Origin: Mytilus galloprovincialis
Lineage: Eukaryota; Mollusca; Bivalvia; Mytilida; Mytilidae
Direction of reading: 5' to 3'
DNA length: 64,000 nt
NCBI RefSeq assembly: GCF_965363235.1
Contig: NC_134846.1
Location: forward strand, 3,601,001-3,665,000
Shown piece after piece: positions 6,301 through 59,328 of this stretch (its first letter is position 1; each line of letters opens with the position of its first letter). The position numbers were made by a program, and so were the translations under genes. Below the pieces are notes generated by a model that was not told the DNA's origin, did no database searches, and worked only from the letters and a program-made list of their open reading frames with translations.

Positions 6301-9050
6301 GCCTGTGCAGCGTTGGCAAGTTCAAGTTCCTTTCTCATGTAAATTTAAACCTGCGTGGCTGTAAGGCGTTATTTACCAGACATGGAGTACAAAAAAATGC
6401 CCTGGTATGATTATTTAATAGAGGAATCATATGACTAAAGAATAAGATAGAACCCCTTTTCTACTGAGTGTCGCCTCATTTTGTCTGTTGACATCTTTTC
6501 TGATCTAGATTTCTGTTGTCATTTAATATTAACCCCTATTTCCCAGTTTGATCCCTTGTCAGATGTTGCTTGAGCCCAATTGACCCCATGTGACAAATTT
6601 CTAGTTTGAACACTGTGACAATGTTCTTCATGTCTTTCTATACGACCACAAAAACTTTGTGGTCATATTTTGGCAAAAATATGGTAATTGAATTGTTCCT
6701 GTAACGTTGATACATTGTTTCAGTCAAATATCTGTTGATATCTGCAAAAAATTTAAATTGTTCAGTGCAGAAATTGAAAATCCATTGTCAGTGCATTTGA
6801 AAACCATTGTCTATGAATTGACACCATTGCCACTGCATTTGTTAGACCAGCATTGAAAATGTACAAATCTGGAAAAGGCAAACACCCCCCCCCCCCCCAA
6901 AAAAAAATTAAAAAATTATATGTATATAAGCACAATGTTTATGCAAACACGAATGACACCAATCCTTGATCAACCCAGAAGAGCATGCAGTTCCTGTCAG
7001 TTACTTATTTTACACATCTGTCATATGGGTTGTAGTTAATTTGTGAAAAATCAGAGAAGGGGAAAACAAAAAAAACTGTACAAACATCATTATAATCCTA
7101 AATCGGCAATCACATGTACCAATAAATTATCATAGAAAGCCCAAAATTGAAAATGCAGGAGTCTGTTTGTCAACAGTTTTTCTGCCGGATAGAAATTCTT
7201 TCTTGTTATTATTAATAAGAAAAAAATAATCTTTTTTAGGTGTCATGAAAGAAATCCAAAAGCAGAAGTTGATGTTAGACGTGAGGAAGGAACTCGATGA
7301 TGGAACAATCACAGATATATCAGATGGTTTGATTTATCGTGAAATATTAAATGATTTCCAGGATGAGGATGCTTTTTTACTTACAGCATTATTGAACACT
7401 GATGGAGTAAATCTTTATTCTTCCTCAAAAGTTGAACTTTGGCCCATTTTTTTGGCCATTAATGAACTAAGCCCTAAGGCAAGATTTTCTCGAGATAACC
7501 TTCTTCTTGTTGGCATTTGGCAAGGCAAAGGAAAGCCACCGTTCAAGTCATATTTTAAAAGCTTAAGTGATCAATTAAACATCCTCTATAATGATGGCAT
7601 AAACATTTCAAAAGATGGTGACAATATAACTGTAAAACTTAGAGTTGTGGGTGGTGTGTTTGATTTGCCAGCAAAAGCTGCCATTCTGAAAATGATGTAT
7701 TTCAATGGGCAATATGCTTGCATAACTTGTGAGGAGCCTGGTCGTGTTGTTAAGCAAGGGAAAGGAACATCAAGATGTTTTCCCTATAGAAATGGTCAGT
7801 ACCAGATGAGGTCTAATGAAAGTGTCCTTGAATGTATGGAGCAAGGAACTTTGAAAAAGCCAGTGAAGGGGTTTAAAGGCTTCTCCGGACTAATTGCTAT
7901 AGAAGCATTTGATCTTGTTGAAGGTATATTACCAGATTATATGCATGGTGTTCTACTTGGAGTAACAAAAATGTTGTTATCAAAATGGTTTTCCCCAACA
8001 CAGAGCAAAAAAGATTATTTCATTGGAAAGGATTTAAAGACTATATCCAGTCGTTTACAACATATTCAGCCACCTTCGTGTATTGAACGCCTACCAAGGG
8101 ATTTAGAGAAACACTACCAATCTCTGAAAGCAACTGAGTTACAGGCATGGTTATTGTTTTATTGTATACCCTGTTTGATGGGAATATTGCCAGACAAATA
8201 TTTGAACCATTTTAGCTGCTTATCAGAAGCCATTTATATTCTTCTAGGTGATAGTATTACTGCCGAAAAATTAGAAAGGGCAGGAAATCTGTTGGAGATC
8301 TTCTATGCATCATTTAATGACCTTTATGGGTTAGGCAGTTGTGGCCTGAATGTTCACAACACATGTGCTCATTTAATCCATTATGTAAAAATGTGGGGTC
8401 CACTCTGGGCCTGGAGTTGTTTTGGGTTTGAAGATAACAATGCAATGTTGTTGCAAGCTGTACATGGAACTGGCATAGTCACTAAGCAAATAATGTTGTG
8501 TAAACAGGTTGAATCTACTCTTCGTAGAAAAACTGTGAAGGTGAATTTAGACTCAAGATCTTGGAAAATAACATACAAAGCACATAATTGTGATGTTTGT
8601 GGGAAAATGGTACCATATGATATGGCAATTGTAAATCCAAATGTTCTTGAAAATTTGGAAATAGTTAATGAAAATGATGTTAAAATAATAGAAAGAATAA
8701 GTCTAAATGGAAAACAGTTCTGCTCGTCATTGTACAAACGAATGAAAAAACGAATTTGTAGCTATGTTTTGTATGATGAACAAAATATTGGCTATTTGAA
8801 ATACTTTGTATTGGTAGTCTCGTCAAATTTTGTATATGCCATTATTGAAAAGTTTGAAGCTGTGAATGGATCTTTGATTGCAGAACTCACAGGCGGAAAG
8901 CACATTTTACCTGTGAAAAAAACTGGTGTCAATGAAGTTAAAGCAATCAGTAGCTTAGTGGATACACTCGTGTATGTAAATACATGTCCTGAAGTCCAAG
9001 AATGTGTTGTTTTAATGCCTAGTAGACATGGACATTCTATATTCAAGTAG
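310..9050 (+). CDS. EnSpm/CACTA-type transposase gene (Transposase_21-like), five exons visible
   Basis: Gene model from splice signals and reading phase: exons 310-423, 2861-2992, 4017-4148, 4969-5604 and 7240-9050. Each internal border has AG before and GT after the exon. Every junction is phase 1 (one base carried over, always rebuilding a GGT glycine codon), so the frame runs open through all five exons to a TAG stop. The first visible exon begins with a partial codon, so at least one 5' exon lies before the window. The N-terminal part is acidic and Ser/Asp-rich with no domain I recognise, followed by a cysteine cluster and then the transposase domain. Known for the family: such proteins cut and join DNA of CACTA-like transposons, and some copies persist as host genes. 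I could not place CACTA termini, so whether this is an intact mobile copy or a host-kept gene is open. No break was seen in the visible frame. Confidence 0.82.
755..857. repeat. Dispersed mussel repeat, copy a (with 'GCAAATGAGACAACTATCC')
   Basis: About 100 bp, almost identical to 3554-3655, and related to the longer repeats at 18537-18760 and 55668-56050 through 'GGTATRATTGCMAATGAGAC'. It forms the left part of the tandem duplication that also copied exon 2 of the transposase gene. It lies in intron 1. Confidence 0.75.
858..2508. mobile_element. Non-autonomous TIR element in transposase intron 1
   Basis: Imperfect terminal inverted repeats of about 31 bp: the left end (858-888) begins 'CCAATTAAAACTAATTGATA' and the right end (2478-2508), read on the minus strand, begins 'CCAACTAAAATTAATTAGTA'; both then read 'GATTTTCATCC'. 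A C-rich patch follows on each side. The interior (1.6 kb) shows no coding frame that I trust. The same position in the second copy of the surrounding tandem duplication (about 3656-3665) has only 10-11 unrelated bases, so this block was either inserted after the duplication or lost from copy two with a short remnant. The superfamily is unclear and I see no clean target-site duplication. Confidence 0.7.
2509..3556 (+). repeat. Tandem duplication, copy 1 (contains exon 2)
   Basis: A 1047-bp stretch repeated at a constant offset of 1156 bp (2510-3556 against 3666-4712) with no length change. By eye I count about ten substitutions. It carries the 132-nt exon 2861-2992 with both splice sites. Together with 755-857 it forms one unit; only the 858-2508 element interrupts it. 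Bases 2604-2680 also hold an antisense piece of the dispersed repeat that occurs at 53880-54455 ('GAATGGAAATGGGGAATGTG'). Confidence 0.9.
3554..4712 (+). repeat. Tandem duplication, copy 2 (contains duplicated exon)
   Basis: Second copy of the unit. It begins with the 100-bp dispersed repeat (3554-3655), directly abutting copy 1 at a short 'CTTATAT'-like overlap, and ends at 4712 where both copies share 'TATAACTT'. The exon 4017-4148 keeps splice sites and frame. It differs from exon 2 by two amino-acid changes (Asp to Gly in 'DDIDRP', Met to Arg in 'MERMGK'). Because the exon is phase 1 on both sides, tandem inclusion keeps the frame. Confidence 0.9.
4969..5604 (+). CDS. Transposase gene exon 4: acidic region plus cysteine cluster
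   Basis: The exon follows 'TTATTCTTAAAG' and ends at 'CCCCAG|GTAATA'. An ATG at 4923 would lie in the preceding intron, so it is not taken as a start. The first 85 or so codons are strongly acidic (many Asp, Glu and Ser, e.g. 'DSEDGIAVDDDS'). A roughly 60-residue hydrophobic/basic stretch follows, then a zinc-ligand-like cluster: 'HYCESCFEVFP', 'RCSTENCTGC' and 'PRKCFIFADIKNQLKDLL'. The pattern C-x2-C ... C-x4-C-x2-C followed by a segment ending in QLKxLL is what I know from animal Transposase_21-type proteins just ahead of the catalytic domain. The exon joins in frame to the exon at 7240. Confidence 0.8.
5605..7239 (+). other. Intron 4 of the transposase gene
   Basis: There is no exon-like segment with convincing splice sites. 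It holds a short TC run near 6040, a small hairpin at about 6640-6668 ('ATACGACCACAAAAACTTTG' then 'TGGTCATAT') that resembles the terminal repeat of the element at 14277-16416, and a C run followed by an A run at 6886-6907. Confidence 0.55.
7240..9050 (+). CDS. Transposase gene exon 5: DDE catalytic domain
   Basis: The exon follows 'ATCTTTTTTAG'; the frame enters through GT (7240-7241) completing a Gly codon. It encodes about 603 residues. Landmarks: 'LLNTDGVNLYSSSKVELWP' with the first likely catalytic Asp; 'GQYACITCEEPG', a CxxC knuckle; 'LPDYMHGVLLGV' with the second likely Asp; and 'GPLWAWSCFGFEDNN' with a likely catalytic Glu. A late cysteine pair, 'NCDVCGKM', lies in the C-terminal third. 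This order (DGV...SSK...WP, then D-x-MH, then W-x-FxFE) fits EnSpm/CACTA transposases of animals. The assignment of the three acidic residues is by analogy. The stop is TAG at 9048-9050. The exon has no interruption over 1.8 kb, which argues for recent activity or selection. Confidence 0.85.
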
Positions 9051-18760: not shown

Positions 18761-20169
18761 CTTCTGATTCATATCAGAACACATATACATGTATTTTCTC
18801 ATTTACAGTACTTTCTTTACACAATTGGCGATTGGAGGAACACGTATATTGTGTTAGTTAAATCAAAAGGAAGGTTTCCCAAAAGCATTATTTAGTGGTG
18901 TGTATTTTTCATCTTTTATATAGATTAGACAGTTTGTTTTCCTGTTTTAAGGGTATTAAGTTAAGTCTTGTCATTTTTTGGGCTCTTTATATAGCATGTT
19001 AATTTATTGTCATAAAAATTCATAATATCTAATAAAATTAGTAGATTTAGCTGACAAAGTCCTTATATTTGAATAAAGAAACATTATTTGTAAGTGGAAA
19101 CTTGTTTAATGTTAATTAGGCTGAAATTAAAAATTGTTTGCTATCCCCTCTCTGTGATCAAAGTACGATAACTCTGGTCAATTTTCCTAACATTCAATCA
19201 TTATGTGAAGATGATATAGTTCTGTGTTCATTTATAGTTTTTTTTCAGAAAAACTTCTAATTGTTTTAGAAAGGTTCCAATTATATTTATTCACTACAGC
19301 ATTCGGCATCAGTTAAAAGCTTCTGGAATAAAGTGGTGGCTATAATGTACTATTTTGTGTGTGTGTGCGTATGTGTGTTTGTGTAAGGCGTTATTACACT
19401 TTTTTCATGTATTTGACTTTAGGGATCGAGTAAAGCAGATAAGTTACATCAGCCTTTCTGCTTCATTTGAGTTCTGACATAATTGTATACACCATGTTAA
19501 TCGTAGAAACAAATGCCTTTACGAGTAGAAGGAGGAATGCTGTTGAATATTTTTGATGCATACCACAGCTTCAAACAGTGTATTCTTGACAGCACAATTA
19601 AACCTATGTTTTTAACTGGCATATTGTACCTCAAATTGAAAGTAGAAAGAAAGTTTTGTTTTGATAACTTCCAGGATATGGCTTTTAAAGAGAGTAATTT
19701 CATGAATACTTGGAAGAAGATGCATTTTCTGTGACATAGGCACTTGTTTTAGAATATCCCCCCCTATATACCTTAATGTTATATTAAGGTATCATACAGG
19801 AAATTTGTATTCTGAAACAAGTGCTTGTGATCTTGATTTAGAGCAGTTTGTCCCATCACATGAAGAAACTTAAAGATGATGAGGGTAGATTTGACCTTGT
19901 TCATATAAGACGTTTTAGCCCGTTCTATACAATTAAATGTTACAAAAAAATATTTATAAGATAATAAAATAATTCTTTATATTGGTATATATTAATTTAA
20001 ATATTCCAAAACAAATAAAAGAAATTATTTATATACATAAATGTCTTTAAAAAACGTATGTAAAATACGAGTATCTAGTACATTTACAGATTTTATAACG
20101 ATCTTAAACTCAATAAAAAGAACTATTATGTAACACTTCGGTGTTGACATGAATATCAATAATGTGGTC
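18761..20169. other. No gene seen
   Basis: There are AT-rich unique-looking stretches, a GT-rich patch near 19360-19385, and open frames on both strands around 19500-19730 that overlap each other and have no recognisable content or splice support. Confidence 0.5.
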
Positions 20170-20417
20170 ATTTTTACAAATTTCCAGTTTACAAAACATT
20201 GAATTTTTCGAAAAACTAAGGATTTTCTTATCCCAGGCATAGATTACCTTAGCCGTATTTGGCACAACTTTTTGGAATTTTGCATCCTCAATGCTCTTCA
20301 ATTTTGTACGTGTTTGGCTTTATAAATATTTTGATATGAGCGTCACTGATGAGTCTTATGAAGACGAAACGCGCGTCTGGCGTACTAAATTATAATCCTG
20401 GTACCTTTGATAACTAT
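20170..20417 (+). repeat. Hammerhead-bearing mussel repeat, copy A
   Basis: It shares with 36112-36290 and the reverse strand of 47247-47444 the order 'TAGATTACCTTAGCCGTATT', 'TTTGGCTTTATAA', a hammerhead core, then 'TAATCCTGGTACCTTTGATA'. The left limit is approximate. The repeat has no coding capacity. Confidence 0.75.
20340..20383 (+). ncRNA. Hammerhead ribozyme, type I with minimal stem III
   Basis: Core bases are all present: CTGATGA at 20346-20352; stem II GTC/GAC (20353-20355 with 20363-20365) around a 7-nt loop; GAAA at 20366-20369; stem III of two pairs (AC with GT) closing a GCGC loop; and C at 20377 as the predicted cleavage-site base. Stem I pairs 20340-20345 (GCGTCA) with 20378-20383 (TGGCGT), including wobble pairs. 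This matches the known hammerhead consensus with a very short stem III, as reported for animal retroelement-borne copies. Activity is predicted, not shown. Confidence 0.8.
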
Positions 20418-20537
20418 GTAAAAGAGAAATTATAACCCTGTTCAAGGTAGACAATCAACACATTGACTTTATAAAATTAAACATAGTTCAAAGGAATATA
20501 ACTCTTGTATACAAATGACACATCAATCGAATTAATT

Positions 20538-35897: not shown

Positions 35898-36111
35898 CTC
35901 GAATCATATAAATGAAAGGTAAAAAGGAAGGATTAAAGAACTCGATTTTCAAGATTATGACATCAATTTTAAAACGAAAATTGTTTTTACAGAATAGTGA
36001 ATGCGGAGCTAGCATTACAAAAGGATTTCTTGACAAATGTGTGAATTTGTGTAACGTAAAAACGGAAAGATTTTGACAAGCGTTGGAAGTTTTAGACTGC
36101 ACTGACAGGAA

Positions 36112-36290
36112 TAGATTACCTCAGCTGTATTTGGCAAAATTTAGGAATTTTTGGTCTTCAAAGCTGTTCAATCTAGTACTTTATGTGGCCTTTATAACAT
36201 TTTTGATTCGAGCGTCACTGATGAGTCTTTTGTAGACGAAACGCGCGTCTGGCGAAAATATTATATTTTATTCTTGGTATCTATAATGAG
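36112..36290 (+). repeat. Hammerhead-bearing mussel repeat, copy B
   Basis: 'TAGATTACCTCAGCTGTATT' ... 'CTTTATAACATTTTTGATTC' ... hammerhead core ... 'ATTCTTGGTATCTATAATGA'. Same layout as copy A at 20170-20417. It sits inside the P450-like region, between pieces 2 and 3. Confidence 0.8.
36212..36254 (+). ncRNA. Hammerhead ribozyme, type I with minimal stem III
   Basis: CTGATGA at 36218-36224, stem II GTC/GAC with a 7-nt loop, GAAA at 36238-36241, two-pair stem III with GCGC loop, and predicted cleavage after C36249. Stem I is GCGTCA (36212-36217) with TGGCG (36250-36254), five pairs with one wobble. All conserved core positions are intact. Confidence 0.82.
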
Positions 36291-37212
36291 TTTATTTGCA
36301 AGTACAAGAATGGAATATGGTGATATGTTTACAGCACTAGAACTATTAATATAAAGCATGAGTGACCAGCTTCATCGTAGACTTAATGGGCATGCAAGTG
36401 ATATTTACTTTTTTGTGTTGTAAAGGAAATGTTAGCAATTTGACAGTGATAATACTGTTACACCTTGGAAGTTTAAGACTGCACTTGCAAGATCACAAAG
36501 TCGATAAGCTATGTTTACAGCACTGGAGTTTTGAGAGCCTAATAGATCAACATAAGCTTCATTTGTAGACCAAATGGGCCTGTAAGTAATATCTACATTT
36601 TGTATCAGCTATTTATCTGTATTGAAGGCTAAGCCTACAAATTCCAAACAATTTGACAGTGATGATTTTCATTTTCAATTTTGATTTTATGTCCGTCAAT
36701 ATTTTCCTTTTATTATAGCATAAATTGTATTTGTTGACCTTTGTTCCAACCGGAGAAAGATTAATGACATCATGCATGTTTTTTCCATGGTTAGGCGTAC
36801 TTAAAGTCTTAATTGAAGACACTAAAACTATAACTGATCACACCTTCATTTAATTCTCAACAATGCAAAGATACTAAACTTACAAATTTGCACGCCATAT
36901 GTGCATTTCTTCTACACAAGACTAATCAGTGGTGTTATTATTAAAACAGATGTTATTTAAAATTATATCGGAGAGTTAAAGTACGGTTGTATGTATCATC
37001 TTTTCCACATATTTGTTTTAGATAATGTGATCTTCTTCTACAGGGTTATCTTTCCTACCTCAGGAGGATTAGCACGTGTTATAGAATCTGACTTAGTCAT
37101 TGGAGGGTACCAGGTACCTAAGGACGTAAGTAAATATAAAGTATCTCATCAAGTGCTTGATAGACTTGTTTACGTACAATTAGATGTTTTAACAGTTGTA
37201 AGTTAGTTAAGT

Positions 37213-41424: not shown

Positions 41425-42419
41425 CTAGATGTAAGTCAAGATATGAGGCTCGATGGGATAGATGTGTTCTACATAGTCATCAAATGTTGAATTATGTAGT
41501 GAAAGAACATCATTTACATAGCGGAAAGTAGAGTTAAAGGATATTGGTAACTTCTTATCTTTCTTCCTAAGAAGTTCCTGCATTAAGTCAGCCTTGGAAT
41601 AATAAAGAAACAAGTCGGCAAGTAGAGGGGCACAGTTTGTTCCCATTGAAACGCCGACAGTCTGTTGAAAAACACATCCTCCGAAGGTAACAAATATGTT
41701 GTCAATCAAGAAATCAAGCATCTTGATAATATCAGTTTCAGAGAATTTTTTGTTTGAATCAGAGTGGTCCTTTACAAAGTAGGATCTATCCCCTCCTAAG
41801 ACAAGATACTTGTATCAACGTTGGTCATTCTTTTTTATGTTTTTTTGAAGCAAAGCAATACCAACTCTTTCAATTTGTCTCTTAGTTTGGAATGTGAAAT
41901 ACTTGTGTAAAGGGTAGAAAAGTCAAATGTTTTAATACTGTTACAAGATGAAAGAGAGTAAGATTGTATGTACTCTAAAAGATCTTTGGAATTTTTAAGT
42001 ATACACATCTGATTCACGCCCCCTCTAGAATAGGCAGTTTCACAATAAATTTGAAGCCCGTCTTTGATTGCTGATAACAGCGATGTTAATAATTTAAAAA
42101 AGAGGTTTCGTGGAGCATTTGGAAGACCCAGCAATATAACGTTGTTTGTAAGGACACTTATGTAGTTTAGGTGTCCAATACAGTGATGGAAGATCCAGTT
42201 CTTCATCTTTGGTTGAAATTCCAAAGGAACACAGAACAGACCTATGTGTTTACATGCAAACACGGTGTTGTTTAGGGCTTTATCTGCGGGGACAACAACA
42301 TATTTGTCATGAAGGTAGAATAGGTGTTTTGCAACATTTCGGTCTTCAAAGATTGACGAAGCATGGGCAGTGATAGACCCATTCAGTTTCTTAATTCTGA
42401 TTTGTATCAACGACCTCAT
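41425..42419 (-). pseudogene. Reverse-transcriptase part of the Penelope-like element
   Basis: Readable blocks include 'LRDKLKELVLLCF' following 'IKTFDFSTLYTSI' (RT motif A with its catalytic-type Asp) and 'GVSMGTNCAPLLADLFLYY' (motif B, very typical of Penelope-like RTs), then motif C and the thumb start. The equivalent region in the copy at 52380-52664 encodes the standard YIDD motif. Part of a broken element. Confidence 0.8.
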
Positions 42420-42876
42420 TGGAAAGAGTGTTTTATGTCTTCCTTCTCGTGCTTAGCCCAGACAAATCCTCAACTGAATCCATCAAAAGTTGTATTTCCA
42501 ATTGATGGATTTAGGCTAACGATATTTCTGACCTTTCGATAACACATTTCGTGGAGAAATGTTATTAACAATGTTGAGGTCACCGGTAATAACGTGGTCA
42601 GCAGGATTATATGTGAATTGGGAACTAGCACAAGTGCAATCAGGAGGTTTAGACTTGAAGTCGTCAATATCGAGATCCAGTAAAACGTGTTTGTAATTGA
42701 AAATTTTAGTTGCAATAGGTTTGGTATAGGTATAAGAAATGATTGGTACAGACTGGTCTTTGAAATGAGGAGGTATTTTCGATTGAACTAATTTAGGATG
42801 AAGGATATTGCCTAAGTTGACGCCATCAATACCTTTGTTGGCAAAGAAAAGATTAAGGAAATATCTTTTCTCTTTT

Positions 42877-43494
42877 TCATCTTTGCCAATGCAGACTGGC
42901 CTGAAAAGTCTGTGACTTGCAATATCCGAAATTATAGCTGTAATTTTGTATTTGGTTTGAATGAGGGTTTGTAACAGTGGATTCCAAACATAAATTGAAC
43001 AGAGAATGACATTTTGAAAGGGGTAATGAATAAAGTTTTGTGCGAATGTGATGAATACCTAACGGCTTTTGTATAAATGGCAGCAAGTCATTCATAGATA
43101 TATCATGCAGAGAAGGTGATGAATAATGACGATGACCATGACTACGTCTACGTTGAGAAGTCGAGTTGAAAATATTCATCATTTTCACCGAGTTACACGA
43201 AGGACTAGATAGAATACCTATACCATCAATTTTGTCATTGCAACCATACGGTGTCGCAGTTCCCAATTGTCTAATCCAGTAGTCCTCTTTTTGTCTACGG
43301 AGAGTCGTTGAAAGATTAGGATTGTTAAAGCTATGGTATATCTTTTCGATATTGCGAACTGTCATAAAAACGATGGAATGATCGTGCTGATTGAAATGCT
43401 GGTATAGAATGTCGTTAGCATTGAGGTTAATGTCTGATCTATGACCGCACATACGTTTGTTTAGCCTTCCTTTCGTTTCACCGACGTATACCAA
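42877..43494 (-). pseudogene. GIY-YIG endonuclease part of the Penelope-like element
   Basis: The longest readable part encodes about 205 residues and starts with 'VYVGETKGRLNKRMCGHR', the second half of a GIY-YIG core (YVG, then the conserved Arg and His region). The corresponding 'VVYGLECN' first half lies just upstream. 'QKEDYWIRQLGTATPYGCND' matches the C-terminal part of the domain in Penelope-like proteins, where the Glu/Asp-Trp-Ile stretch is followed by a glycine-containing loop. It lies upstream of the RT on the same strand. Part of a broken element. Confidence 0.75.
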
Positions 43495-45160: not shown

Positions 45161-46302
45161 TTAGCATGAACGCTCCCATGCATGATTCAAAACACCATTG
45201 CAGCAGGTGTTGTAAGCTCGATCATACGATTTTGTTCCACAGCATGAGCGCATCTTTCTGTTCAAAACTTCATTGCAGCATGATTTGTAAACTGGGTTAT
45301 AAGCAACTATCCCACAGCAAAAAAAAGAACGCTCTTTTTTAAGATTCAGTACACCTTTGCAGCAGGTATTATAAGCTGGATTATACGCAACTGATCCACA
45401 GCATCGACGCTGTTTTTTGTGATTCAGTACACCTTTGCAGCAGGTTTTATAAGCTGAATTATACGCAACTGATCCACAGCATTGACGCTCTTTTTTGTGA
45501 TTCAGTACACCTTTGCAGCAGGTTTTATAAGCTGAATTATACGCAACTGTTCCACAGCATCGACGCTCTTTTTTGTGATTCAGTACACCCTTGCAGCAGG
45601 TTTTATAAGCTGAATTATACGCAACTGTTCCACAGCATGAACGCTCTTTTTTGTGATTCAGTACACCTTTGCAGCAGGTATTATAAGCTGGATTATACGC
45701 AACTGATCCACAGCATCGACGCTCTTTTTTGTGATTCAGTACACCTTTGCAGCAGGTTTTATAAGCTGAATTATACGCAACTGTTCCACAGCATGAACGC
45801 TCTGTTTTGTGATTCAGTACACCTTTGCAGCAGGTTTTATAAGCTGAATTATACGCAACTGTTCCGCAGCATGAACGCTCTTTTTTGTGATTCAGTACAC
45901 CATTGCAGCATGATTTATAAGCTGGATCAAATGCAACGGTTCCACAACATGAACGATTCCATTTATTATTTAATGCACCATTACAGCATGATTTATAAGC
46001 TGGATTATACGCAACTGTTCCACAGCATGAACGCTCTTTTTTGTGATTCAGTACACCATTGCAGCATGATTTATAAGCTGGATTATACGCAACTGTTCCA
46101 CAGCATGAACGCTCTTTTTTGTGATTCAGTACACCATTGCAGCATGATTTATAAGCTGGATTATACGCAACGGTTCCACAACACGAACGCCCCCATTCTT
46201 GATTCAATACACCGTTACAACAGGTTTTGTAAGCTGGACTATAAGTTGCATTTCCACACACATCTTGAAAATCAGAACAGAACAATATCATAATGTTGAT
46301 AG

Positions 46303-46335
<33 letters not shown>

Positions 46336-47723
46336 GAGTGAGTGCGTGCGTGAGTGGGTGGGTGAGTGAGTGTGAGAGATTATAAAAATAGAAAATGATA
46401 AAAAAAACATAAATATTAAAATATAACACACTAATAAACTAATAAAATTTGTTGGTAGTAATGGTTTAGTGTTTAATTATGTTAAAAGTATGGTTGATAA
46501 GAAGTAATCTAACTGTTGATACATCTTATGAAACTGCAATTTTCTTAGTTTAACAGTGTGTGTTGGATTTTAAAATATCGTGTCTGCTTATTAGTTCGTT
46601 AGTAATAAATCATTTCCTTCCATCTCTGAAACCGGACAAACAAACATACATATGACCTAACAAATAAGATTGTTTACCGGGTTTGTAATAACATAACTAA
46701 CACAACGGATGCAACCTGCTTTCGAAGCACATAAGATACCCCTCCAGTTTTTGGTGGGGTTCGTTTTGCTTGATATTTAGTTTTCTATGTTGTTTCTTGT
46801 GCACTTTTATTTGTCTGTGTGTTATTTTTTCTATTTTAGCATTGGTGTTGTCTGTATCTACAAATTTATATCTCGTTGTGTGATGGATTTACCATTGCAG
46901 TAGGTTATTGATAGTGCAAACTCCTAACAAATCATATCATAAAGTATATTACATATATACAGCGATCATGGTGGTAAAGAATTTAGATAACAATTTTGTT
47001 TCTTTTTCTCAAAGACTAGCACAATCATTATTTTTCTCGATCAAATGTAATGAATATTAGTCTATAATTTTTTTTTTCATTCTAACTCAAAGTAAAGTAA
47101 AATATTTAATAATTATGGTGTTTTATTAAACGGCAAACATTCTCAAATGCGTTTAAAAACAATCTAAAAAGGACCCCAGCACCGTCTTAAATTCAAAAAC
47201 GTTATGCACAAACACATAAAAGAAAACCGGTGTTAATAAATAAATTCATCATAGATACCAGGATTGGACTTTTTGTATTTGCTCCAGACGCGCGTTTCGT
47301 CTACAAAAAACTCATCAGTAACGCTCGAATAGTATAAGTAAAAATGGCCACAAAAAAAAAAAAAAAAAAGAAACGCAGTTAAAGAGGATTGACGACCAAC
47401 AGTTCTTAAATGTTATGCCAAACACAGCTTAGGTAATCTATTCCCGAGGTAAAAGATATCATTTATAAAGTTTTACAGACAATATATAAATATTGATCGT
47501 CACAAATCGGAATAGCGGAATAATCCAAGGTTATATTATCGATTTCTGTCGAGCAGGGCGTTTGATACAATTAAACTGCGTTATTAACCTTTGAAATAAT
47601 AGCATCACGAAAAATTTCATTTTTAAGTTACTTAGTGTATTGACTTAACGTACCTGCATGTGTGTTCTCTATCAAAGCAAAACACAGCAGTAGAGCAGTA
47701 AAGGTTTCTTTACAAGTGATCAT
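45161..47723 (-). CDS. Galaxin-like secreted protein, 14 double-cysteine repeats
   Basis: Two coding exons: 47723-47654 (70 nt) and 46263-45161 (1103 nt), together 390 codons plus stop. Exon 1 encodes 'MITCKETFTALLL' and further hydrophobic residues ending 'NTHA', a signal peptide, and ends at a GTACGT donor in phase 1. Exon 2 follows 'CTGATTTTCAAG' and restores the frame (G|AT, Asp). The mature part is 14 repeats of about 26 residues: 'CCGTVAYNPAYKSCCNGVLN' plus a basic hexapeptide (HKKERS type). Paired cysteines at this spacing are the signature of galaxin, a coral skeletal-matrix protein; molluscs have similar proteins. Function as an extracellular or shell-matrix protein is inferred. An acceptor-like 'GAATTTTTCAG' just before the ATG suggests an extra 5' non-coding exon. 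Repeats differ mainly at Asn/Lys after the second CC pair. Confidence 0.88.
46300..46376. repeat. Tetranucleotide microsatellite (TTGA)n/(GTGA)n
   Basis: 'TTGATTGATTGATTGATTGA' then GTGAGTGCGTGCG-type units, just inside the intron of the galaxin-like gene, 37 bp from the acceptor of its repeat exon. Confidence 0.9.
46725..46865 (+). mobile_element. Diverged Penelope-like 3' tail in the galaxin intron
   Basis: 'CCAGTTTTTGGTGGGGTTCG', 'TAGTTTTCTATGTTGTTTCT' and 'TTTTAGCATTGGTGTTGTC' match the tail family with more changes than the 52-53 kb copies. Antisense to the gene. Confidence 0.65.
47247..47444 (-). repeat. Hammerhead-bearing mussel repeat, copy C, in the galaxin intron
   Basis: The minus strand reads 'AATAGATTACCTAAGCTGTG' ... 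hammerhead ... 'CAATCCTGGTATCTATGATG'. An A run (plus strand 47352-47370) interrupts the middle. It has the same orientation as the galaxin-like gene, so its ribozyme is in the pre-mRNA. Confidence 0.8.
47281..47324 (-). ncRNA. Hammerhead ribozyme motif, weak stem I
   Basis: On the minus strand CTGATGA, a stem II of GTT/GAC (one wobble), GAAA, AC-GCGC-GT stem III and the cleavage-site C (complement of 47287) are all present. Stem I (GCGTTA with TGGAGC) has two wobbles and one mismatch, so it may be slow or depend on flanking pairing. Confidence 0.65.
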
Positions 47724-48125: not shown

Positions 48126-48654
48126 ATGTTATATGTTGATGAGTATAACAAATGTTCCTATTTTGCTGAAGTTTAGTTTACACCTGATTGATTATTATAT
48201 AAATCAAAACAGATTTTAAATGCTGATTATATTCTTAACCAAAACAGATTAAATGCTAATTATTTGATTATTATGTAAAATGAAGAGTGTTAATATGAGT
48301 TAGATATATTCACCTGTACTCAACACCTGAATGTATACTAAAACATGGAGGCTGATGAGTATGAGAAAACATTTATTTTGAAGGTTAGTAAATAATGTTT
48401 ATGATAACAAGTTCAGTTGTGAAATATAAATGTTAATTCTAATGAGAAAAGTATCATTTAAAGGTCAAATATGCATACCAGCAATTGTCGATAATTCAGA
48501 AATAATTATTCCATGTCTACAACATTGGGAACAATTATTCCCCATATTCATGATAAATCATACCTGTTCTTATAATAATTGTAAATACCAATTTACCATT
48601 TCGGTAGTAGTAATGGATTGAATATAATAATATTTTTGGGTCGGAAAAGATATT

Positions 48655-48785
48655 ATAGGGTTATTGCATGAATATTAGGGAATATTGTCCCGAGTAGAAT
48701 TTTATATTGCACGAGCTTGCGAGTCCAATATATGTTCTACGAGGGACAATATTCCCCAATATTCATGCAATAACACTTTTATTGT
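48655..48785. repeat. Long hairpin 1
   Basis: 'AGGGTTATTGCATGAATATT' on the left is answered by 'AATATTCATGCAATAACACT' on the right; 'GGGAATATTGTCCC' by 'GGGACAATATTCCCC'; the centre is 'GCACGAGCTTGCGAG'. The arms are about 60 bp with few mismatches. There is no coding sequence. Confidence 0.85.
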
Positions 48786-50008: not shown

Positions 50009-51533
50009 TCAACAATAAAAAAGTGTCCTTAAATTCCACATAGGTTTTGAAAAGTCTCTGGCTAGAATTCTTGGGATTCGTCTGAAGATTCCAACGGAAG
50101 AAATTGGCTTGAATGTTTTCCTTGGCGGTTCATAACAGTAATTTTGCCTAGAATGTCTCTGACCTTCCCCATTTGACTGTTCCATGTTAAAGTTAATATT
50201 AAAAGTACAGTTATTCAGAACAGTGCCTTTACTGAACATGTTAGATAATGCCTCTGACGCACCTTTAGAAGATTGTTCATGAATATTATTAGGCGCAGCA
50301 GTATAAGAACAGACAGACTGTGAAGATGTGTCCATCGTCGGGCTCATTTGGTGTGAAACAGTAGAACGGTCAATCTTCTGTAAAGCCACATTGTTACATG
50401 TATTGTCACTTTCATTTGCAGTCACTGATTGTCCAACATGTCCAAGTGACGATTTAACACAAGTTAATACATCTGAATATTCCCTTTGCTCATTATCGGA
50501 GAGATCATCATCGTAAGCCTCAATTGAACTTGTACTTTTGTGACCAGATATATGTTTAATTTTGTCTCTAGGTACACCTGCCTTGCGAAGCGTTTTTATT
50601 GTTGTTTTACGCACACTGTGGTTTGTTTTACGGTCCATCCCAGCTTCTTTTGCGGCTATTGGCATCAAGTTTGCCAGCGTATTTTCTCCCATAGGCCTTG
50701 CGTAATACCATATCATGGATTCAACTCTTTCCATTGGAATACATGTCAAATAAAACGGTGACTCTGGTTCCATTACATTTTCCGGACGTCGAAGAAGATA
50801 TGCTTTAAAAAGTCGTATTGGACAGCGGTCAGATTTATTTTCATACATTCGCGGTTTAACTTTACGATTCTCTTTTCCCTTGGTTCCATCACGAGTTTTA
50901 GTAAGTCTCTCAGAAAATTCTAAATACTGTCGATTATCCACAGGGTCCTTCTTCATTAGAATATCTCCCAATTGTAATTGCCGATGTTAATTTCTACCAC
51001 GTAGTCCGAAACATTTTGTAAAATAGTACCAGAGAGAAAATATAAGTATTCTAGGTGTACCATCACCAAGCTGCCCCTGTTCCCACAACAAATCTTCTTC
51101 ATCCTTACTTAATGCCTTTGAAGCATTCGGCTTATGTCCTTTTCCTAGTTTTTTCAACTGGACCTTTTTTGCAGAAAGTGCTCTTGTTGCCAAATTAAAT
51201 TCCTTGTCACGTAATGAATGTGAGTACTCTTTCCTTTAAATACCTCTCGATACTGGCACGAATACCGTCAAACATCCCCGGTTCATATTTCTGTCCATTT
51301 TCTTTCTTTAAGGTTATGTAAAATTCAGACAAGAAAGCATCTAGTGTATTGTGAGGGATGTCCTCGATTTACCTCAACTCCCCCTTTCCAACCAGCCATT
51401 TGTATAATAATTTCAAGTCACGCTTCGTGCATTAACTGTTGATTTTTTTCTTTTGATCGTCAATAAAACTCATCACCATTTGCTTATCAATCATAGACTC
51501 TGTCAAATTATCTGTTTAAACGACGTCTGCCAT
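50009..51533 (-). pseudogene. Crypton-like tyrosine recombinase (DUF3504-type), broken
   Basis: The main open part, 50971-50009, encodes 320 residues with 'DRCPIRLFKAYLLRRP', 'HSVRKTTIKTLRKAG' (HxxR), 'HISGHKSTSSIEAYDDD' (GH, then the candidate Tyr nucleophile): the C-terminal half of a tyrosine-recombinase site. Upstream, 51193-50987 encodes 'LSKDEEDLLWEQGQLGDGTP' and 'WYYFTKCFGLRGRN', the conserved region before it. Further upstream, to the ATG at 51533, fragments such as 'YKWLVGKGEL' and 'DGIRASIERYLK' fit the core-binding half. This set is shared by Cryptons and their host relatives (ZMYM2/QRICH1/KIAA1958 family). It is intronless. An in-frame TAA separates the two downstream blocks, and further stops and one shift lie in the N-terminal third, so it is probably dead. 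The Asn-rich tail ('NNCTFNINFNMEQ') ends near 50009. Confidence 0.75.
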
Positions 51534-53716: not shown

Positions 53717-53879
53717 ACTTAAAAGTTAAAGGGCACTCCATGTATTGTCAAAAACGTTCTTTTTGGCGTTAATATTTATTCACTTATAGGGTCGTTGCAT
53801 CGAAACTAAACACATTTATTATTAATAAACCAGTTGTTAGCATGACACGGGTTATGTTCTTTCATATATGTTATGATGG

Positions 53880-54455
53880 TATGATACTAAACCCCTCACG
53901 GGGAGGATTGTGTCTGATATTCATATGATGAAGACATAATTTTTCAATCAGTTTAATTGAAGTCCGGAGCTGGCATGTCAGTTAACTGCTAGTAGTCTGA
54001 TGTTATTTATGTATTATCGTCATTTTGTTTATTTTCTTTGGTTAAATCTTTTGACATCAGACTCGGACTTCTCTTGAACTGAATTTTAATGTGCGCATTG
54101 TTATGCGTTTAATTTTCTGCATTGGCTAGAGGTATAGGGGGAGGGTTGAGATCTCACAAACATGTTTAACCTCGCCGCATTTTTGCGCCTGTCCCAAGTC
54201 AGGAGCCTCTGGCATTTGCTAGCCTTGTATTATTTTAACTTTTAGTTTCTTGAGTACAATTCGGAGTTTAGTATGGTGTTCATTATCACTGAACCAGTAT
54301 ATATTTGTTTAGGGGCCAGCTGAAGGACGGCTCCGGATGCGAGAATTTCTCGTTGCATTGAAGACCTGTTGGTGACCATCTGCTGTTGTCTGCTCTATGG
54401 TCGGGTTGTTGTCTCTTTGACACATTCCCCATTTCCATTCTCAATTTTATTATAT
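53880..54455 (+). repeat. Dispersed mussel repeat with internal inverted segments
   Basis: It contains 'TCAGTTTAATTGAAGTCCGG' and, inverted, 'CGGACTTCTCTTGAACTGAA'; then 'CGCCTGTCCCAAGTCAGGAG' and the ending 'GTTGTTGTCTCTTTGACACA' + 'TTCCCCATTTCCATTCTCAA'. The ending recurs, inverted, at 2604-2680, 3760-3836 and 28378-28505, and the middle recurs inverted at 55910-56010. Confidence 0.7.
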
Positions 54456-57468: not shown

Positions 57469-59328
57469 CTAGCAAAAAACACCGTGACAACATCTCTTGA
57501 AAGAAGGATTGTAGGCAACAGTTCCACAACATGCACGTTGCTTGAAAGTATTCAGTACTCCATTACAGCAGGTTTTAAAATCTGGATTATACGCTACGGT
57601 TCCACAGCAACCACGTTGCTTGAAAGTATTCAATACTCCATTACAGCATGTTTTGAAATCTGGATTATACGCTACTGTCCCACAGCATCCACGTTGCCTA
57701 AAAGTATTCAATACTCCATTACAGCAAGTTTTGAAACTAGGATTAAACCATCTTGTCCCACATACAGCTGAAAAAGATATACGCCATTAAAACGTGTAGT
57801 TATATGTTAATAATCATGATGATAATCTCATCATATATAAATAACAGGTTAATAATTTTTTTATCAGATGCGTGTTTCGTATGTAAAAGACTCATCAGTG
57901 ATTCCCGAACCAAAAAGGGCTAACAAGGGCTAAACAAAGTACGCGTTTGAAGAGCATTGCAGAACCAAAATTCTGAAAAGGTTTTAAAAAAAATAATTAT
58001 AGATAACAGGATTGTAATTTTGTATTCGCAGCAGACGTGCGTTTCGTCTACAAAAGAGTAATCAGTGACCCACAAATCTAACAGAGTATAAAGGGCAAAA
58101 TAAATTACGAAGTTAAAGAGCATTGAAGTTTTGCTTAAAACAGCGAAGATACTTTGTTGCAGGGGTAGAATATAACACGTATAAGACAAATATTCAGATC
58201 GAAGTCGTATCTTATGGACGTTTAAATATGACGTCATTATGAACTATATTTTCAAATCAATGGATATTTATCGATCACTAATTAAACGCCAACACGTGTT
58301 GGTTGGTCGTTATAGAATGCTATCAGATATGCTACTTATGTCGGAACAATCCAATTCCTTTTTCAGGAATTTGACCAACCGAACTAGACTATTTACCGGA
58401 TTCGTAATAACATTAAAAAACGATAGGTGCCAAAGGTGGAGCAGAATCTGCTTACCGATCTGGCACAACTTTGATCAACCCCGTTGGTTGTTGGTGGGGT
58501 TATTATTGCTAAGTCTTAAGTTTTTAAGTGTGTGTGTTGTGTACTAATTTTTGTTTGTTTCTTAGTCATGGCGTATTCATTTTTTTTTCGGTAGATGTGT
58601 TTAAATGTTCTTCTGGTATCTTTCGCTCCTTTTCTTTAATTAACATTTTGTTGTTTTTATGTAATCAGGGTCAAATGTTTGGCTTCACAAAACGACGTCA
58701 TATTTCAAAACATGCCACAGTAACGTCACGAATCGATTTAGCGATTTTCAACAAATGATAAATTCCTGATTTGATACCAGCATTTTCTAAATGAAATTGT
58801 GGGTAGGACCTTCAAATCAAAAAGATGCTAAAAAGGATAAGATTTTAAATAATACATAGTCTATATAGTTATACCTTTCAACAATTGACTGATGTTTTTC
58901 TTTTGTATTTTGAATGTCTTTCGGTTATCTTGTTTGATGATTTATTGTCTTATTTCGTATATCCATATCACAAAAATACTTACATAAATGGACATGTAAC
59001 AGAATGTTGAAGGCTGATTGTCCTTTTATTTACTTTTGATATTTTATCTTTATTTATTCAAAATAATTCTCGTTTAAAAAATCTACAAATTGAAATAAAA
59101 GTTTCCATGAATATATTGTTAGTATGTAGCAAATTAAAAAGTAATTCTATTTTGCTGCAATATTTCGTTATATACCATTATACATGAATGCTCAATTTGA
59201 ACAATTTGCAAGATCCTTATTTGACTGGTATAGGGAGGTGAAGAGCAAACAAACGTACCTGCTTCGCTTTGTTGTATTAACGAGGAGCATATAAGTATAA
59301 AAGCTATAGTTCCTTTGCATTTGTCCAT
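57469..59328 (-). CDS. Galaxin-like secreted protein, 4 double-cysteine repeats
   Basis: Two coding exons: 59328-59259 (70 nt) and 57767-57469 (299 nt), 122 codons plus stop. Exon 1 encodes 'MDKCKGTIAFILICSSLIQQ' then SEA, a clear signal peptide, and ends at a GTACGT donor in phase 1, exactly like the gene at 45161-47723. Exon 2 follows 'ATCTTTTTCAG' (G|CT, Ala). The mature protein has four repeats of the form 'CCGTVAYNPDFKTCCNGVLN' plus TFKQR; the first lacks one Cys (VCGT), the last ends 'CCHGVFC'. An in-frame Met further upstream was not chosen because a 'TTTGTTTTGCAG' acceptor lies between it and the signal peptide. A smaller paralogue of the 14-repeat gene 10 kb away, same strand; the matrix role is inferred. 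Confidence 0.88.
57850..58145 (-). repeat. Two decayed hammerhead-bearing repeats in the intron
   Basis: 57850-57965 and 58000-58145 on the minus strand. The first keeps CTGATGAGTC and GAAAC, but stems II and III no longer pair well. The second has 'GTAGACGAAACGCACGTCTG' with an altered CTGA core. Neither is expected to cleave. They are in the sense direction of the gene. Confidence 0.65.
58270..58645 (+). mobile_element. Diverged Penelope-like 3' tail in the galaxin intron
   Basis: 'ATTTACCGGATTCGTAATAA', 'GGTGGAGCAGAATCTGCTTA' and 'TGGTGGGGTTATTATTGC' match the tail family over about 370 bp with many changes. Antisense to the gene. Confidence 0.65.

What the first reader, a model, noticed from the sequence alone, without database searches (positions are those of the whole stretch)
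20340..20383. Intact type I hammerhead ribozymes carried by a dispersed mussel repeat
Three repeat copies (20340-20383, 36212-36254, and minus 47281-47324) keep every core base of a hammerhead: CTGATGA, GAAA, a paired stem II, a two-base-pair stem III with GCGC loop, and the cleavage C. Two more copies (57.85 and 58.0 kb) have decayed cores. Very short stem III forms are known from animal retrozymes and from Penelope-like elements; which class this roughly 180-250-bp repeat belongs to is not settled by one window. Its co-occurrence with Penelope-like elements makes a link worth testing.
Basis: partly seen in the sequence, partly recalled or inferred. Interest (0 to 1): 0.72.

Follow-up and report, generated by a model that had tools for sequence, protein, structure and literature searches.

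The report
Mussel ribozyme retroelement with fixed copying start
The three hammerhead ribozymes are real and belong to a very abundant, already described kind of mussel mobile RNA element (a retrozyme); the new part is that most of the genomic copies examined end at one internal point about 40 bases beyond the ribozyme cut, which suggests that circles or uncut tandem RNAs, not cut linear ones, are what gets copied into the genome.

Summary
Observation confirmed. The three window copies keep a hammerhead core; Rfam RF00163 scores are just under the curated cut-off (33.0, 28.2, 24.4 bits; cut-off 34). A related family with 3,208 exact cores has compensatory changes in all three stems.

The "180-250-bp repeat" is a set of 5'-truncated pieces of a 342-356-bp unit that also forms tandem arrays, with about 34,000 core matches above control in the genome. 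By anatomy it is a metazoan non-LTR retrozyme, already reported from Mytilus galloprovincialis.

What I add concerns mobilisation, which the 2020 paper left open (it named circles as templates and Penelope-like elements as candidates). Of 39 insertions, 30 end at one internal point, roughly 33-50 nt 3' of the cleavage site; none ends at the cleavage site; 5' ends scatter. Three empty sites show near-blunt insertion. Laps of one array share variants. A linear self-cleaved monomer could template only about 40 nt, so the template was probably the circle or an uncut multimer. An internal start downstream of a hammerhead is what a Penelope-like RT showed in vitro (PMC11167929). No partner element was identified; the Penelope link stays indirect.

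The parts
20132..20420 (+). Family A retrozyme insertion, 0.81 unit, 5'-truncated at unit position 67, ending at the common 3' end
   Evidence: 92.8% identity to the 356-bp unit, unit 67->356
20340..20383 (+). Type I hammerhead; cleavage predicted after C20377; stem I 6 bp, stem II 4-5 bp, stem III 2 bp with GCGC loop
   Evidence: (RF00163 33.0 bits)
20378..20417 (+). 40-nt tail between cleavage site and inferred reverse-transcription start (..CCTTTGATAACTAT|)
   Evidence: same end in 30 of 39 insertions
36106..36301 (+). Family B retrozyme insertion, 5'-truncated, same 3' end (GAGTTTATTT|)
   Evidence: unit B 144->3
36212..36255 (+). Type I hammerhead, cleavage after C36249
   Evidence: (28.2 bits)
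47237..47454 (-). Family B retrozyme insertion, 5'-truncated, same 3' end
   Evidence: unit B 136->342
47281..47324 (-). Type I hammerhead, cleavage after C47287; one mismatch in stem I, structure predicted unstable (+0.9 kcal/mol)
   Evidence: (24.4 bits)
57980..58124 (-). Decayed family B copy (core lost), same 3' end
   Evidence: unit B 203->5
57822..57980 (-). Decayed family B copy (CTGATGA and GAAAC kept, stem II broken), same 3' end
   Evidence: unit B 182->339
41835..43494 (-). Context only: broken retroelement frames read by eye as an N-terminal-GIY-YIG Penelope-like element (Naiad type, recalled)
   Evidence: Pfam gave no RT or GIY-YIG hit; a 480-aa frame of a related element, L039, gave one RT hit at E 1.3e-4 in PADLOC

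Best explanation
The repeat is a mussel retrozyme: a non-coding retroelement of about 350 nt with a type I hammerhead. Proposed cycle: tandem copies are transcribed, the hammerhead cuts the RNA into monomers, and host ligase closes them into circles (circles shown by others for M. galloprovincialis, not here). A reverse transcriptase supplied in trans then starts at a fixed internal site roughly 33-50 nt 3' of the cleavage site, just upstream of a conserved 30-nt block, on a nicked target. It copies one to several laps and stops at scattered points, giving near-blunt, 5'-truncated, often multi-lap insertions. Because the start lies only about 40 nt from the 5' end of a self-cleaved linear monomer, the linear form can give only a stub; circularisation (or escape from cleavage) is needed to make a usable template. 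The most likely enzyme is a Penelope-like RT, because internal initiation with required RNA 3' of the start is the property reported for such an enzyme. Shown here: ribozyme conservation, common 3' end, scattered 5' ends, no excess of target-site duplications, variants shared between laps. Inferred: circle as template, role of the 30-nt block, identity of the enzyme.
For: Common 3' end: 30 of 39 insertions end within 8 nt of one point (binomial p 5e-32 for a 17-nt interval; the point was taken from the first array, L003); 0 of 39 end or begin within 4 nt of the cleavage site; no 5' end falls in that interval. All 5 window pieces, which were not chosen for their ends, end there. By eye, three family D copies end 33-34 nt 3' of their cleavage site. 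Genome-wide exact counts: tail 20-mer 11,362, of which 2,485 (21.9%) continue 12 nt across the point; an internal control 20-mer 3,763, of which 2,324 (61.8%) continue.

Empty sites: L003 (2.7-unit array) sits in a retroelement frame, with the intact site in 28 of 29 related loci fetched; L021 and L016 each have one related empty site (L064; L014, the latter only 76-83% identical). All are near-blunt (0-4 bp ambiguous by microhomology), with 13, 0 and 4 filler bases at the 5' joint. Direct repeats at joints are no commoner than in mismatched controls (score 7 or more: 4 of 39 against 9.1%).

One template per array: in 12 of 12 lap comparisons (8 arrays at 7 loci; three comparisons each from L003 and L008) laps share more variants than with other insertions, e.g. 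7 of 8 against 0.5, 17 of 19 against 2.2; in 11 of 12 at least one shared variant is rare elsewhere.

Constraint: A against B consensus identity is 100% over unit positions 1-30 after the start, apart from one extra base in B, and 97.7% in the hammerhead; other stretches 54-88%. Double-sided pair changes in stems I, II and III of family D.

Literature: mussel circles outnumber linear RNA (PMC7229834, passages); a Penelope-like RT starts internally, 3' of its hammerhead, and needs RNA beyond the start (PMC11167929, parts 1-3 of 4).
Against: No autonomous partner with the same tail or block was found; only about 297 kb (with overlaps) of 1.385 Gb was read. The one hammerhead-bearing PLE-like locus seen (L022) has, by eye, a 13-16-bp target-site duplication, unlike the retrozymes, and its own putative 3' end is not marked in genome counts (21 of 35 continue across it, 60%, like the control). 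Penelope insertions of a rotifer are reported both with 8-10-bp duplications and without (PMC3846280, passages), so this point cuts neither way strongly. No clear AT preference at joints (74% and 70% against 67% and 70% further out). 9 of 39 copies do not end at the point. 5' ends are not quite uniform (KS p 0.02), as expected from choosing loci by the core. Uncut linear multimers, or exchange within an array, would leave nearly the same marks as circles. The family B consensus rests on 1-14 copies per position; the L011 copy differs from it at two places in the 30-nt block. The block contains a B-box-like word (GGGTCGATGCC, 2 mismatches), so it may be conserved as a promoter. RNA, cleavage and circles were not tested here.
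Confidence: 0.6

Rival explanations
1. SINE-like mobilisation by a LINE: the conserved tail TGGTAYC..TTGAT..TATT is a borrowed LINE 3' end, and the LINE RT starts there.
For: The tail is itself copied and similar in families A, B and D. Some LINE clades leave little target-site duplication (recalled).
Against: No poly-A or short terminal repeats seen at the 3' ends listed. The most conserved block lies 3' of the start, outside what a single-lap copy keeps at that end. Multi-lap arrays. No LINE with this tail was seen, but no dedicated search was made.
Confidence: 0.22
2. Same RT start, but the template is the uncut linear multimer read from tandem arrays, not a circle; the hammerhead then limits rather than enables transposition. 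(This overlaps with the best explanation, which allows escape from cleavage.)
For: The Anolis PLE used unprocessed RNA in vitro and did not need ribozyme activity (PMC11167929). Genomic arrays exist.
Against: In mussel the linear form was under 5% of the detected RNA in one set of blots, with linear/circular ratios up to 10-25% in another (PMC7229834, passages). Laps share variants as expected for one circle (12 of 12 comparisons), though a homogeneous parent array would do the same.
Confidence: 0.3
3. The repeat is a DNA-level satellite or the tandem core of a DNA transposon; the ribozyme is incidental.
For: Long arrays occur, e.g. about 13 units at C1:28984482-28989164 and 9-10 units in family D.
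Against: Single polarised insertions with one common 3' end and scattered 5' ends; three empty sites show that only retrozyme sequence (plus 0-13 filler bases) was inserted; double-sided pair changes keep the ribozyme in family D.
Confidence: 0.04

Closest known systems
Metazoan non-LTR retrozyme of Mytilus galloprovincialis (Cervera & de la Pena 2020, PMC7229834; parts 1 and 3, Discussion and passages read)
   Same: Type I hammerhead, ~350-390-bp tandem units, low GC, thousands of copies, mussel; self-cleavage and abundant circular RNA reported there. That paper already proposed circles as templates and PLEs as candidate enzymes.
   Different: No sequences were at hand to test identity. There: about 5,000 copies and two ribozyme families in a draft genome, and for metazoan repeats in general target-site duplications larger than 4 bp when present. 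Here: about 34,000 core matches above control, at least three families, no excess of duplications, and a common internal 3' end, of which I found no mention in the parts read.
Poseidon Penelope-like element PAc of Anolis (Frangieh et al. 2024, PMC11167929; parts 1-3 of 4 read)
   Same: Hammerhead followed by an internal RT start (commonest start 111-118 nt into the frame with the cut at 26, so 85-92 nt 3' of it; roughly 33-50 nt here); RNA 3' of the start is required; ends of genomic copies fall on the RT start sites.
   Different: PAc encodes RT and GIY-YIG endonuclease; the retrozyme is non-coding. PAc prefers AT-rich 5'-ATT and starts without homology to the target; here no clear preference, and 0-4 bp of possible microhomology.
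Plant LTR retrozymes (described from PMC7229834; PMC4918200 seen in listings only)
   Same: Hammerhead, circular RNA, non-autonomous.
   Different: Type III hammerhead, LTRs, primer binding site, 4-bp duplications.
Newt and axolotl hammerhead repeats (PMC7229834, part 3)
   Same: Type I hammerhead in ~330-350-bp repeats; weak stem III with tetraloop.
   Different: Sequences not compared here; reported to cleave better as dimers.

Membership tests
Metazoan non-LTR retrozyme | Type I hammerhead with intact core | tested here: met
   (Rfam scores just below the curated cut-off)
Metazoan non-LTR retrozyme | Tandem or dispersed units of about 170-400 bp | tested here: met
   356, 342 and 350-356 bp
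Metazoan non-LTR retrozyme | Low GC, no LTR, non-coding | tested here: met
   GC 38.8% and 34.8%; the only frame of 90 aa or more inside the L003 array is 94 aa, antisense; the three empty sites show no terminal repeats beyond the laps
Metazoan non-LTR retrozyme | Expressed as circular RNA; self-cleavage | not testable with these tools
   Reported for M. galloprovincialis in PMC7229834
Metazoan non-LTR retrozyme | Target-site duplications longer than 4 bp, when present | tested here: not met
   No excess over control in 39 insertions; 0-4 bp at three empty sites; the feature is stated as optional
Penelope-like element | Encodes RT and GIY-YIG endonuclease | tested here: not met
   Unit has no long frame; it can only be a dependent element
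Penelope-like mode of copying (works like) | Internal RT start 3' of a hammerhead, leaving a fixed tail | tested here: met
   30 of 39 insertions; three family D copies by eye; counts. The RT start itself is inferred from copy ends
Penelope-like mode of copying (works like) | AT-rich (ATT) target | tested here: inconclusive
   weak difference only; T-rich at the three empty sites
SINE | A and B boxes of a polymerase III promoter; LINE-derived 3' tail | tested here: inconclusive
   No A box at 1 mismatch or fewer; one B-box-like word with 2 mismatches in the conserved block (box consensus recalled); no search for a LINE tail was made
LTR retrozyme | Type III hammerhead and LTRs | tested here: not met
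   Type I; no LTRs

The most novel reading that the evidence does not exclude
The ribozyme acts as a template gate. It lies just 5' of the reverse-transcription start, so cutting ruins linear RNA as a template while circularisation restores it; a Penelope-like RT then copies the circle by rolling from an internal start set by a portable 30-nt RNA handle, which at one locus (L087-L089) has been joined to a unit without any recognised hammerhead. This would explain how animal retrozymes move and why their circles accumulate.
Probability: 0.35. Interest if true: 0.78.

Novelty: new member of a known kind. Interest (0 to 1): 0.55.

Why it matters
Which enzyme moves animal retrozymes was left open in the 2020 paper, which named LINEs or PLEs and proposed circles as templates (PMC7229834, Discussion read; the same in PMC7761336, passages). 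A common internal end just beyond the ribozyme cut turns this into a direct test: give a purified PLE or LINE RT the circle, the cut monomer and the uncut dimer, and see where and whether it starts. It would also give a simple functional logic for placing a ribozyme beside an RT start, in Penelope-like elements too.

Tried and rejected
A minus-strand hammerhead look-alike (CTGATGATACCCTCGGG.ACGAAAC; L015 6187 -, L020 1749 +), which suggested a viroid-like two-polarity element, was rejected: it fails the stem test (absent from the 38 hits). It is the complement of a segment in family A (GGACGTTTCGTCC) that can pair with the ribozyme core; the family B consensus lacks that segment, so a general shut-off role is unlikely.

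The circular MFE folds of A and B do not form the hammerhead, and in isolated 48-nt pieces the MFE is also another fold (-10.0 against -6.0 kcal/mol for 20340). No conclusion was drawn, because tertiary contacts are not modelled.

Search for a partner: the 28-nt block alone occurs 5,804 times. Two of its places that seemed to lie outside known retrozyme tails were looked at: L086 was a plain retrozyme; L087-L089 was a composite, not an autonomous element. There Rfam gave the hammerhead of the retrozyme part (E 8.2e-6) and four matches of E 0.29 or worse, and ARAGORN no tRNA in L087 and L088. A phage-collection search found nothing.

Protein searches for the Naiad-like frames gave no Pfam RT, no significant PDB relative, an insignificant NCBIfam hit and a weak PADLOC RT hit, so the PLE name rests on eye and recall. 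Papers not held: PMC8557442, PMC4209133, PMC5785218.

Literature searches. Of the papers listed I opened parts of five (PMC7229834, PMC11167929, PMC7761336, PMC3846280, PMC8490949). None of the parts read reports a common internal 3' end for animal retrozymes; the other papers were seen as listings only, and the library is open-access only.

Full report
The observation. Each has CTGATGA, GAAA, a stem II, a two-pair stem III closed by GCGC, and the cleavage C. Rfam's type I model matches all three from its first to its last position, but below its curated cut-off of 34 bits: 33.0 (E 2.3e-4), 28.2 (E 0.0094) and 24.4 (E 0.17). The loose core pattern occurs four times in the window against 0.08 expected. 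The copy near 57.87 kb keeps the two core words but not stem II; the copy near 58.0 kb has lost the core. The hammerhead structure of the third intact copy is predicted unstable (+0.9 kcal/mol; -6.0 and -5.0 for the others).

Abundance. In the window's own genome (1.385 Gb, no name given; the window is C9:3601001-3665000) the pattern CTGATGAN{4,20}GAAAC has 35,828 matches against 1,953 for the pattern read backwards. Among the first places listed several lie 342-364 bp apart. The repeat is thus a tandem-forming element of about 350 bp; in my sample many copies are solitary and truncated.

Is the ribozyme kept by selection? I aligned 31 of the 38 hammerheads (25 distinct; further laps and duplicates left out). 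Against the hammerhead structure 98.0% of 300 cells pair, 4 of 12 pairs show changes on both sides (reached by 4 of 500 shuffles) and the covariation score is reached by none of 500; the number of further pair types is not unusual (167 of 500). Sliding the partners drops pairing to 17-48%. Caveat: the rows had already passed a stem test, so the pairing percentage is inflated. All the double changes come from a third family, here called D (CTGAAGAGACATGTATTGTCGAAATGCGCATC; rows from L004, L021 and L064), so they count as few events, though they fall in all three stems. Family D is a real family: 3,208 exact cores and its own arrays with 350-356-bp spacing, e.g. 9 exact matches spanning 10 units at C1:26024005-26027186. 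Between the A and B consensus the hammerhead is 97.7% identical, other stretches 54-88%.

Anatomy of insertions. I mapped 45 retrozyme pieces on the fetched loci and the window. Dropping 3 cut by a locus end and 1 copy of a 6.2-kb duplication (L021), and merging 2 split pieces, left 39 insertions. Thirty of 39 end within 8 nt of one unit position, typically after GATAACTAT(T) in A and GAGTTTATT(T) in B, that is about 40-43 nt (A) or 43-53 nt (B) 3' of the cleavage site. The nine others end at unit 131-347 (L005, L009, L011 twice, L014, L017, L019, L034, L078). None ends or begins within 4 nt of the cleavage site. The 5' ends scatter from unit 11 to 283 (KS against uniform p 0.02; against p 1.5e-18 for the 3' ends). 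Loci L003-L021 were chosen for a core match, about a quarter of the 100 places listed, which biases the 5' ends and hides insertions shorter than about 70 nt. The five window pieces were not chosen for their ends, and all five end at the point. By eye, three family D copies end 33-34 nt after their cleavage site, again at TATT.

Genome-wide check. Exact matches to the 20 nt before the end number 11,362, and 2,485 of them (21.9%) run on for 12 more unit bases. For one internal control 20-mer the figures are 3,763 and 2,324 (61.8%). If mutation removes equal shares, about two thirds of the tails stop at the point. The tail is also three times commoner than the internal word, as 5' truncation predicts, though differences between subfamilies could add to that.

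Target sites. Flanks of each insertion were compared with all other loci. The 2.7-unit array L003 lies inside a retroelement frame whose uninterrupted form is present in 28 of 29 related loci; L021 and L016 have one related empty site each (L064; L014, at 76-83% identity). In all three the target looks intact: no loss, 0-4 bp that could be microhomology or duplication, and 13, 0 and 4 extra bases at the 5' joint. Over the 39 insertions, direct repeats at the joints are no commoner than in mismatched pairings (score 7 or more: 4 of 39 against 9.1%). Metazoan hammerhead repeats were said to have duplications larger than 4 bp when present (PMC7229834, passage), so this is a difference. Rotifer Penelope insertions occur with 8-10-bp duplications and without (PMC3846280, passages). 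AT content at the joints is only slightly raised.

Laps. In the family A arrays with overlapping laps, 12 of 12 lap pairs (8 arrays at 7 loci) share more variants with each other than with other insertions: L003 7 against 0.5, L008 up to 8 against 0.3, L016 17 against 2.2, L009 11 against 3.0; in three pairs only one variant is shared, against 0.0. Rare variants are shared in 11 of 12 (none in one L005 array). In several arrays the laps are no closer to each other than to the consensus, as expected when each lap has since gathered its own changes. An array thus mostly descends from one monomer. This fits repeated copying of a single circle, but a homogeneous multimer or later unequal exchange could give the same.

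The block after the start. Unit positions 1-30, immediately 3' of the end point, are identical in the A and B consensus apart from one extra base in B, and 29 of 30 also match the composite locus L087. The B consensus rests on 1-14 copies per position, and the L011 copy differs at two places in the block. A single-lap copy does not keep this block at its 3' end, so its conservation points to a function in the RNA. Candidates are binding of the RT, or a promoter: it contains GGGTCGATGCC, two mismatches from a polymerase III B box (consensus recalled), a match expected by chance about 0.15 times per unit strand (my estimate). At C1:10932620-10934180 a truncated family B copy with intact hammerhead is followed by two units of [block of ~103 nt + 282 nt of unrelated sequence X], ending again just upstream of where the block would start. 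X has no ribozyme recognised by Rfam. I read this as template switching at the block; it is one locus.

Mechanism. If the RT starts about 40 nt 3' of the cleavage site, a self-cleaved linear monomer (which begins at that site) can yield only a cDNA of about 40 nt. The sampled insertions that end at the point run through the cleavage site, so their template was closed there: a circle or an uncut multimer (stubs of about 40 nt, if they exist, would have escaped my sampling). Northern blots in the 2020 paper show mostly circles in mussel (PMC7229834, passages), and that paper and its follow-up review already proposed circles as templates and PLEs as candidates. The Penelope-like element of Anolis starts reverse transcription internally, most often 111-118 nt into its frame, with a hammerhead cut at 26 and a second adjacent start, and needs RNA up to position 172 (PMC11167929, parts 1-3 of 4 read); its authors call such initiation unique to PLEs. 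The geometry here is similar. That paper also found ribozyme activity dispensable in vitro and unprocessed RNA to be the main substrate, which favours the multimer rival.

What is not settled. I found no element in the loci read that shares the tail or the block. The retroelement frames in the window (41.8-43.5 kb, minus) and in the tandem 4,018-bp units around C3:50302800 look to me like Naiad-type PLEs (recalled; Craig et al. 2021 was not held). I saw no hammerhead in the latter, but Rfam at E<=10 also missed the minimal hammerhead of L022 in the same call. Profile searches barely recognise the RT. L022 carries a minimal, PLE-like hammerhead (CTGATGATGCCGCATTAGCGGCGAAACATGTC) in tandem and inverted copies; by eye one copy ends 59 nt after the cut, flanked by a 13-16-bp direct repeat. 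Genome counts around that end are small and do not stand out from the control (35 and 21).

Verdict. The finding is real and belongs to a known kind, the metazoan retrozyme, already described from a mussel. The extra result, a common internal 3' end just beyond the ribozyme cut with near-blunt insertion, bears on an open question and is directly testable; the PLE attribution remains an inference.

Noticed in passing
window 53863-53927 (+); L039 2431-2495 (+); L022 5028-5092 (-): SECIS-like matches (29.4-31.7 bits, cut-off 35). In L039 it lies 55 nt after the stop of the 480-aa retroelement frame. I recall that Naiad PLEs of clams were reported to encode selenoproteins; that paper was not held.
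   Followed up: partly
L087-L089 (C1:10932620-10934180): Composite insertion: retrozyme B with intact hammerhead followed by two 385-bp units that carry the retrozyme's conserved block but a different body (X, with a GGTTCGAATTC word) and no hammerhead recognised.
   Followed up: partly
L022 1531 (-), 2448 (+), 3581 (+): A second, minimal hammerhead type with a 2-nt stem III loop on tandem and inverted 1.1-kb repeats, PLE-like, with a 13-16-bp flanking direct repeat by eye; not found by Rfam at E<=10.
   Followed up: partly
Family A unit 29-60 (e.g. L003 about 1832-1862): Segment complementary to the ribozyme core (CGTTTCGTC against GACGAAACG); some copies extend to TCATCAG against CTGATGA. 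Absent from the family B consensus.
   Followed up: partly
window 48653-48784: Long imperfect hairpin matching two microRNA families below their cut-offs (49 and 45 bits); probably an inverted-repeat element.
   Followed up: no
window 45161-46438 (-): 425-aa open frame made of cysteine-rich repeats (..CCGTVAYNPAYKSCCNGVLNHKKERS..); a 316-aa frame is also open on the other strand.
   Followed up: no
window 7230-9050 (+) and 50009-50986 (-): Transposase_21/DUF1258 frame and a DUF3504/phage-integrase-like (tyrosine recombinase) frame.
   Followed up: no
G000 C1:28984482-28989164 and C1:29329474-29333436: Two retrozyme arrays of about 11-13 units with a very similar pattern of exact matches, perhaps copies of one duplicated segment.
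   Followed up: no
L015 846-1327: Apparently an insertion inside a retrozyme copy that duplicates about 18 bp of it (unit 91-108).
   Followed up: no
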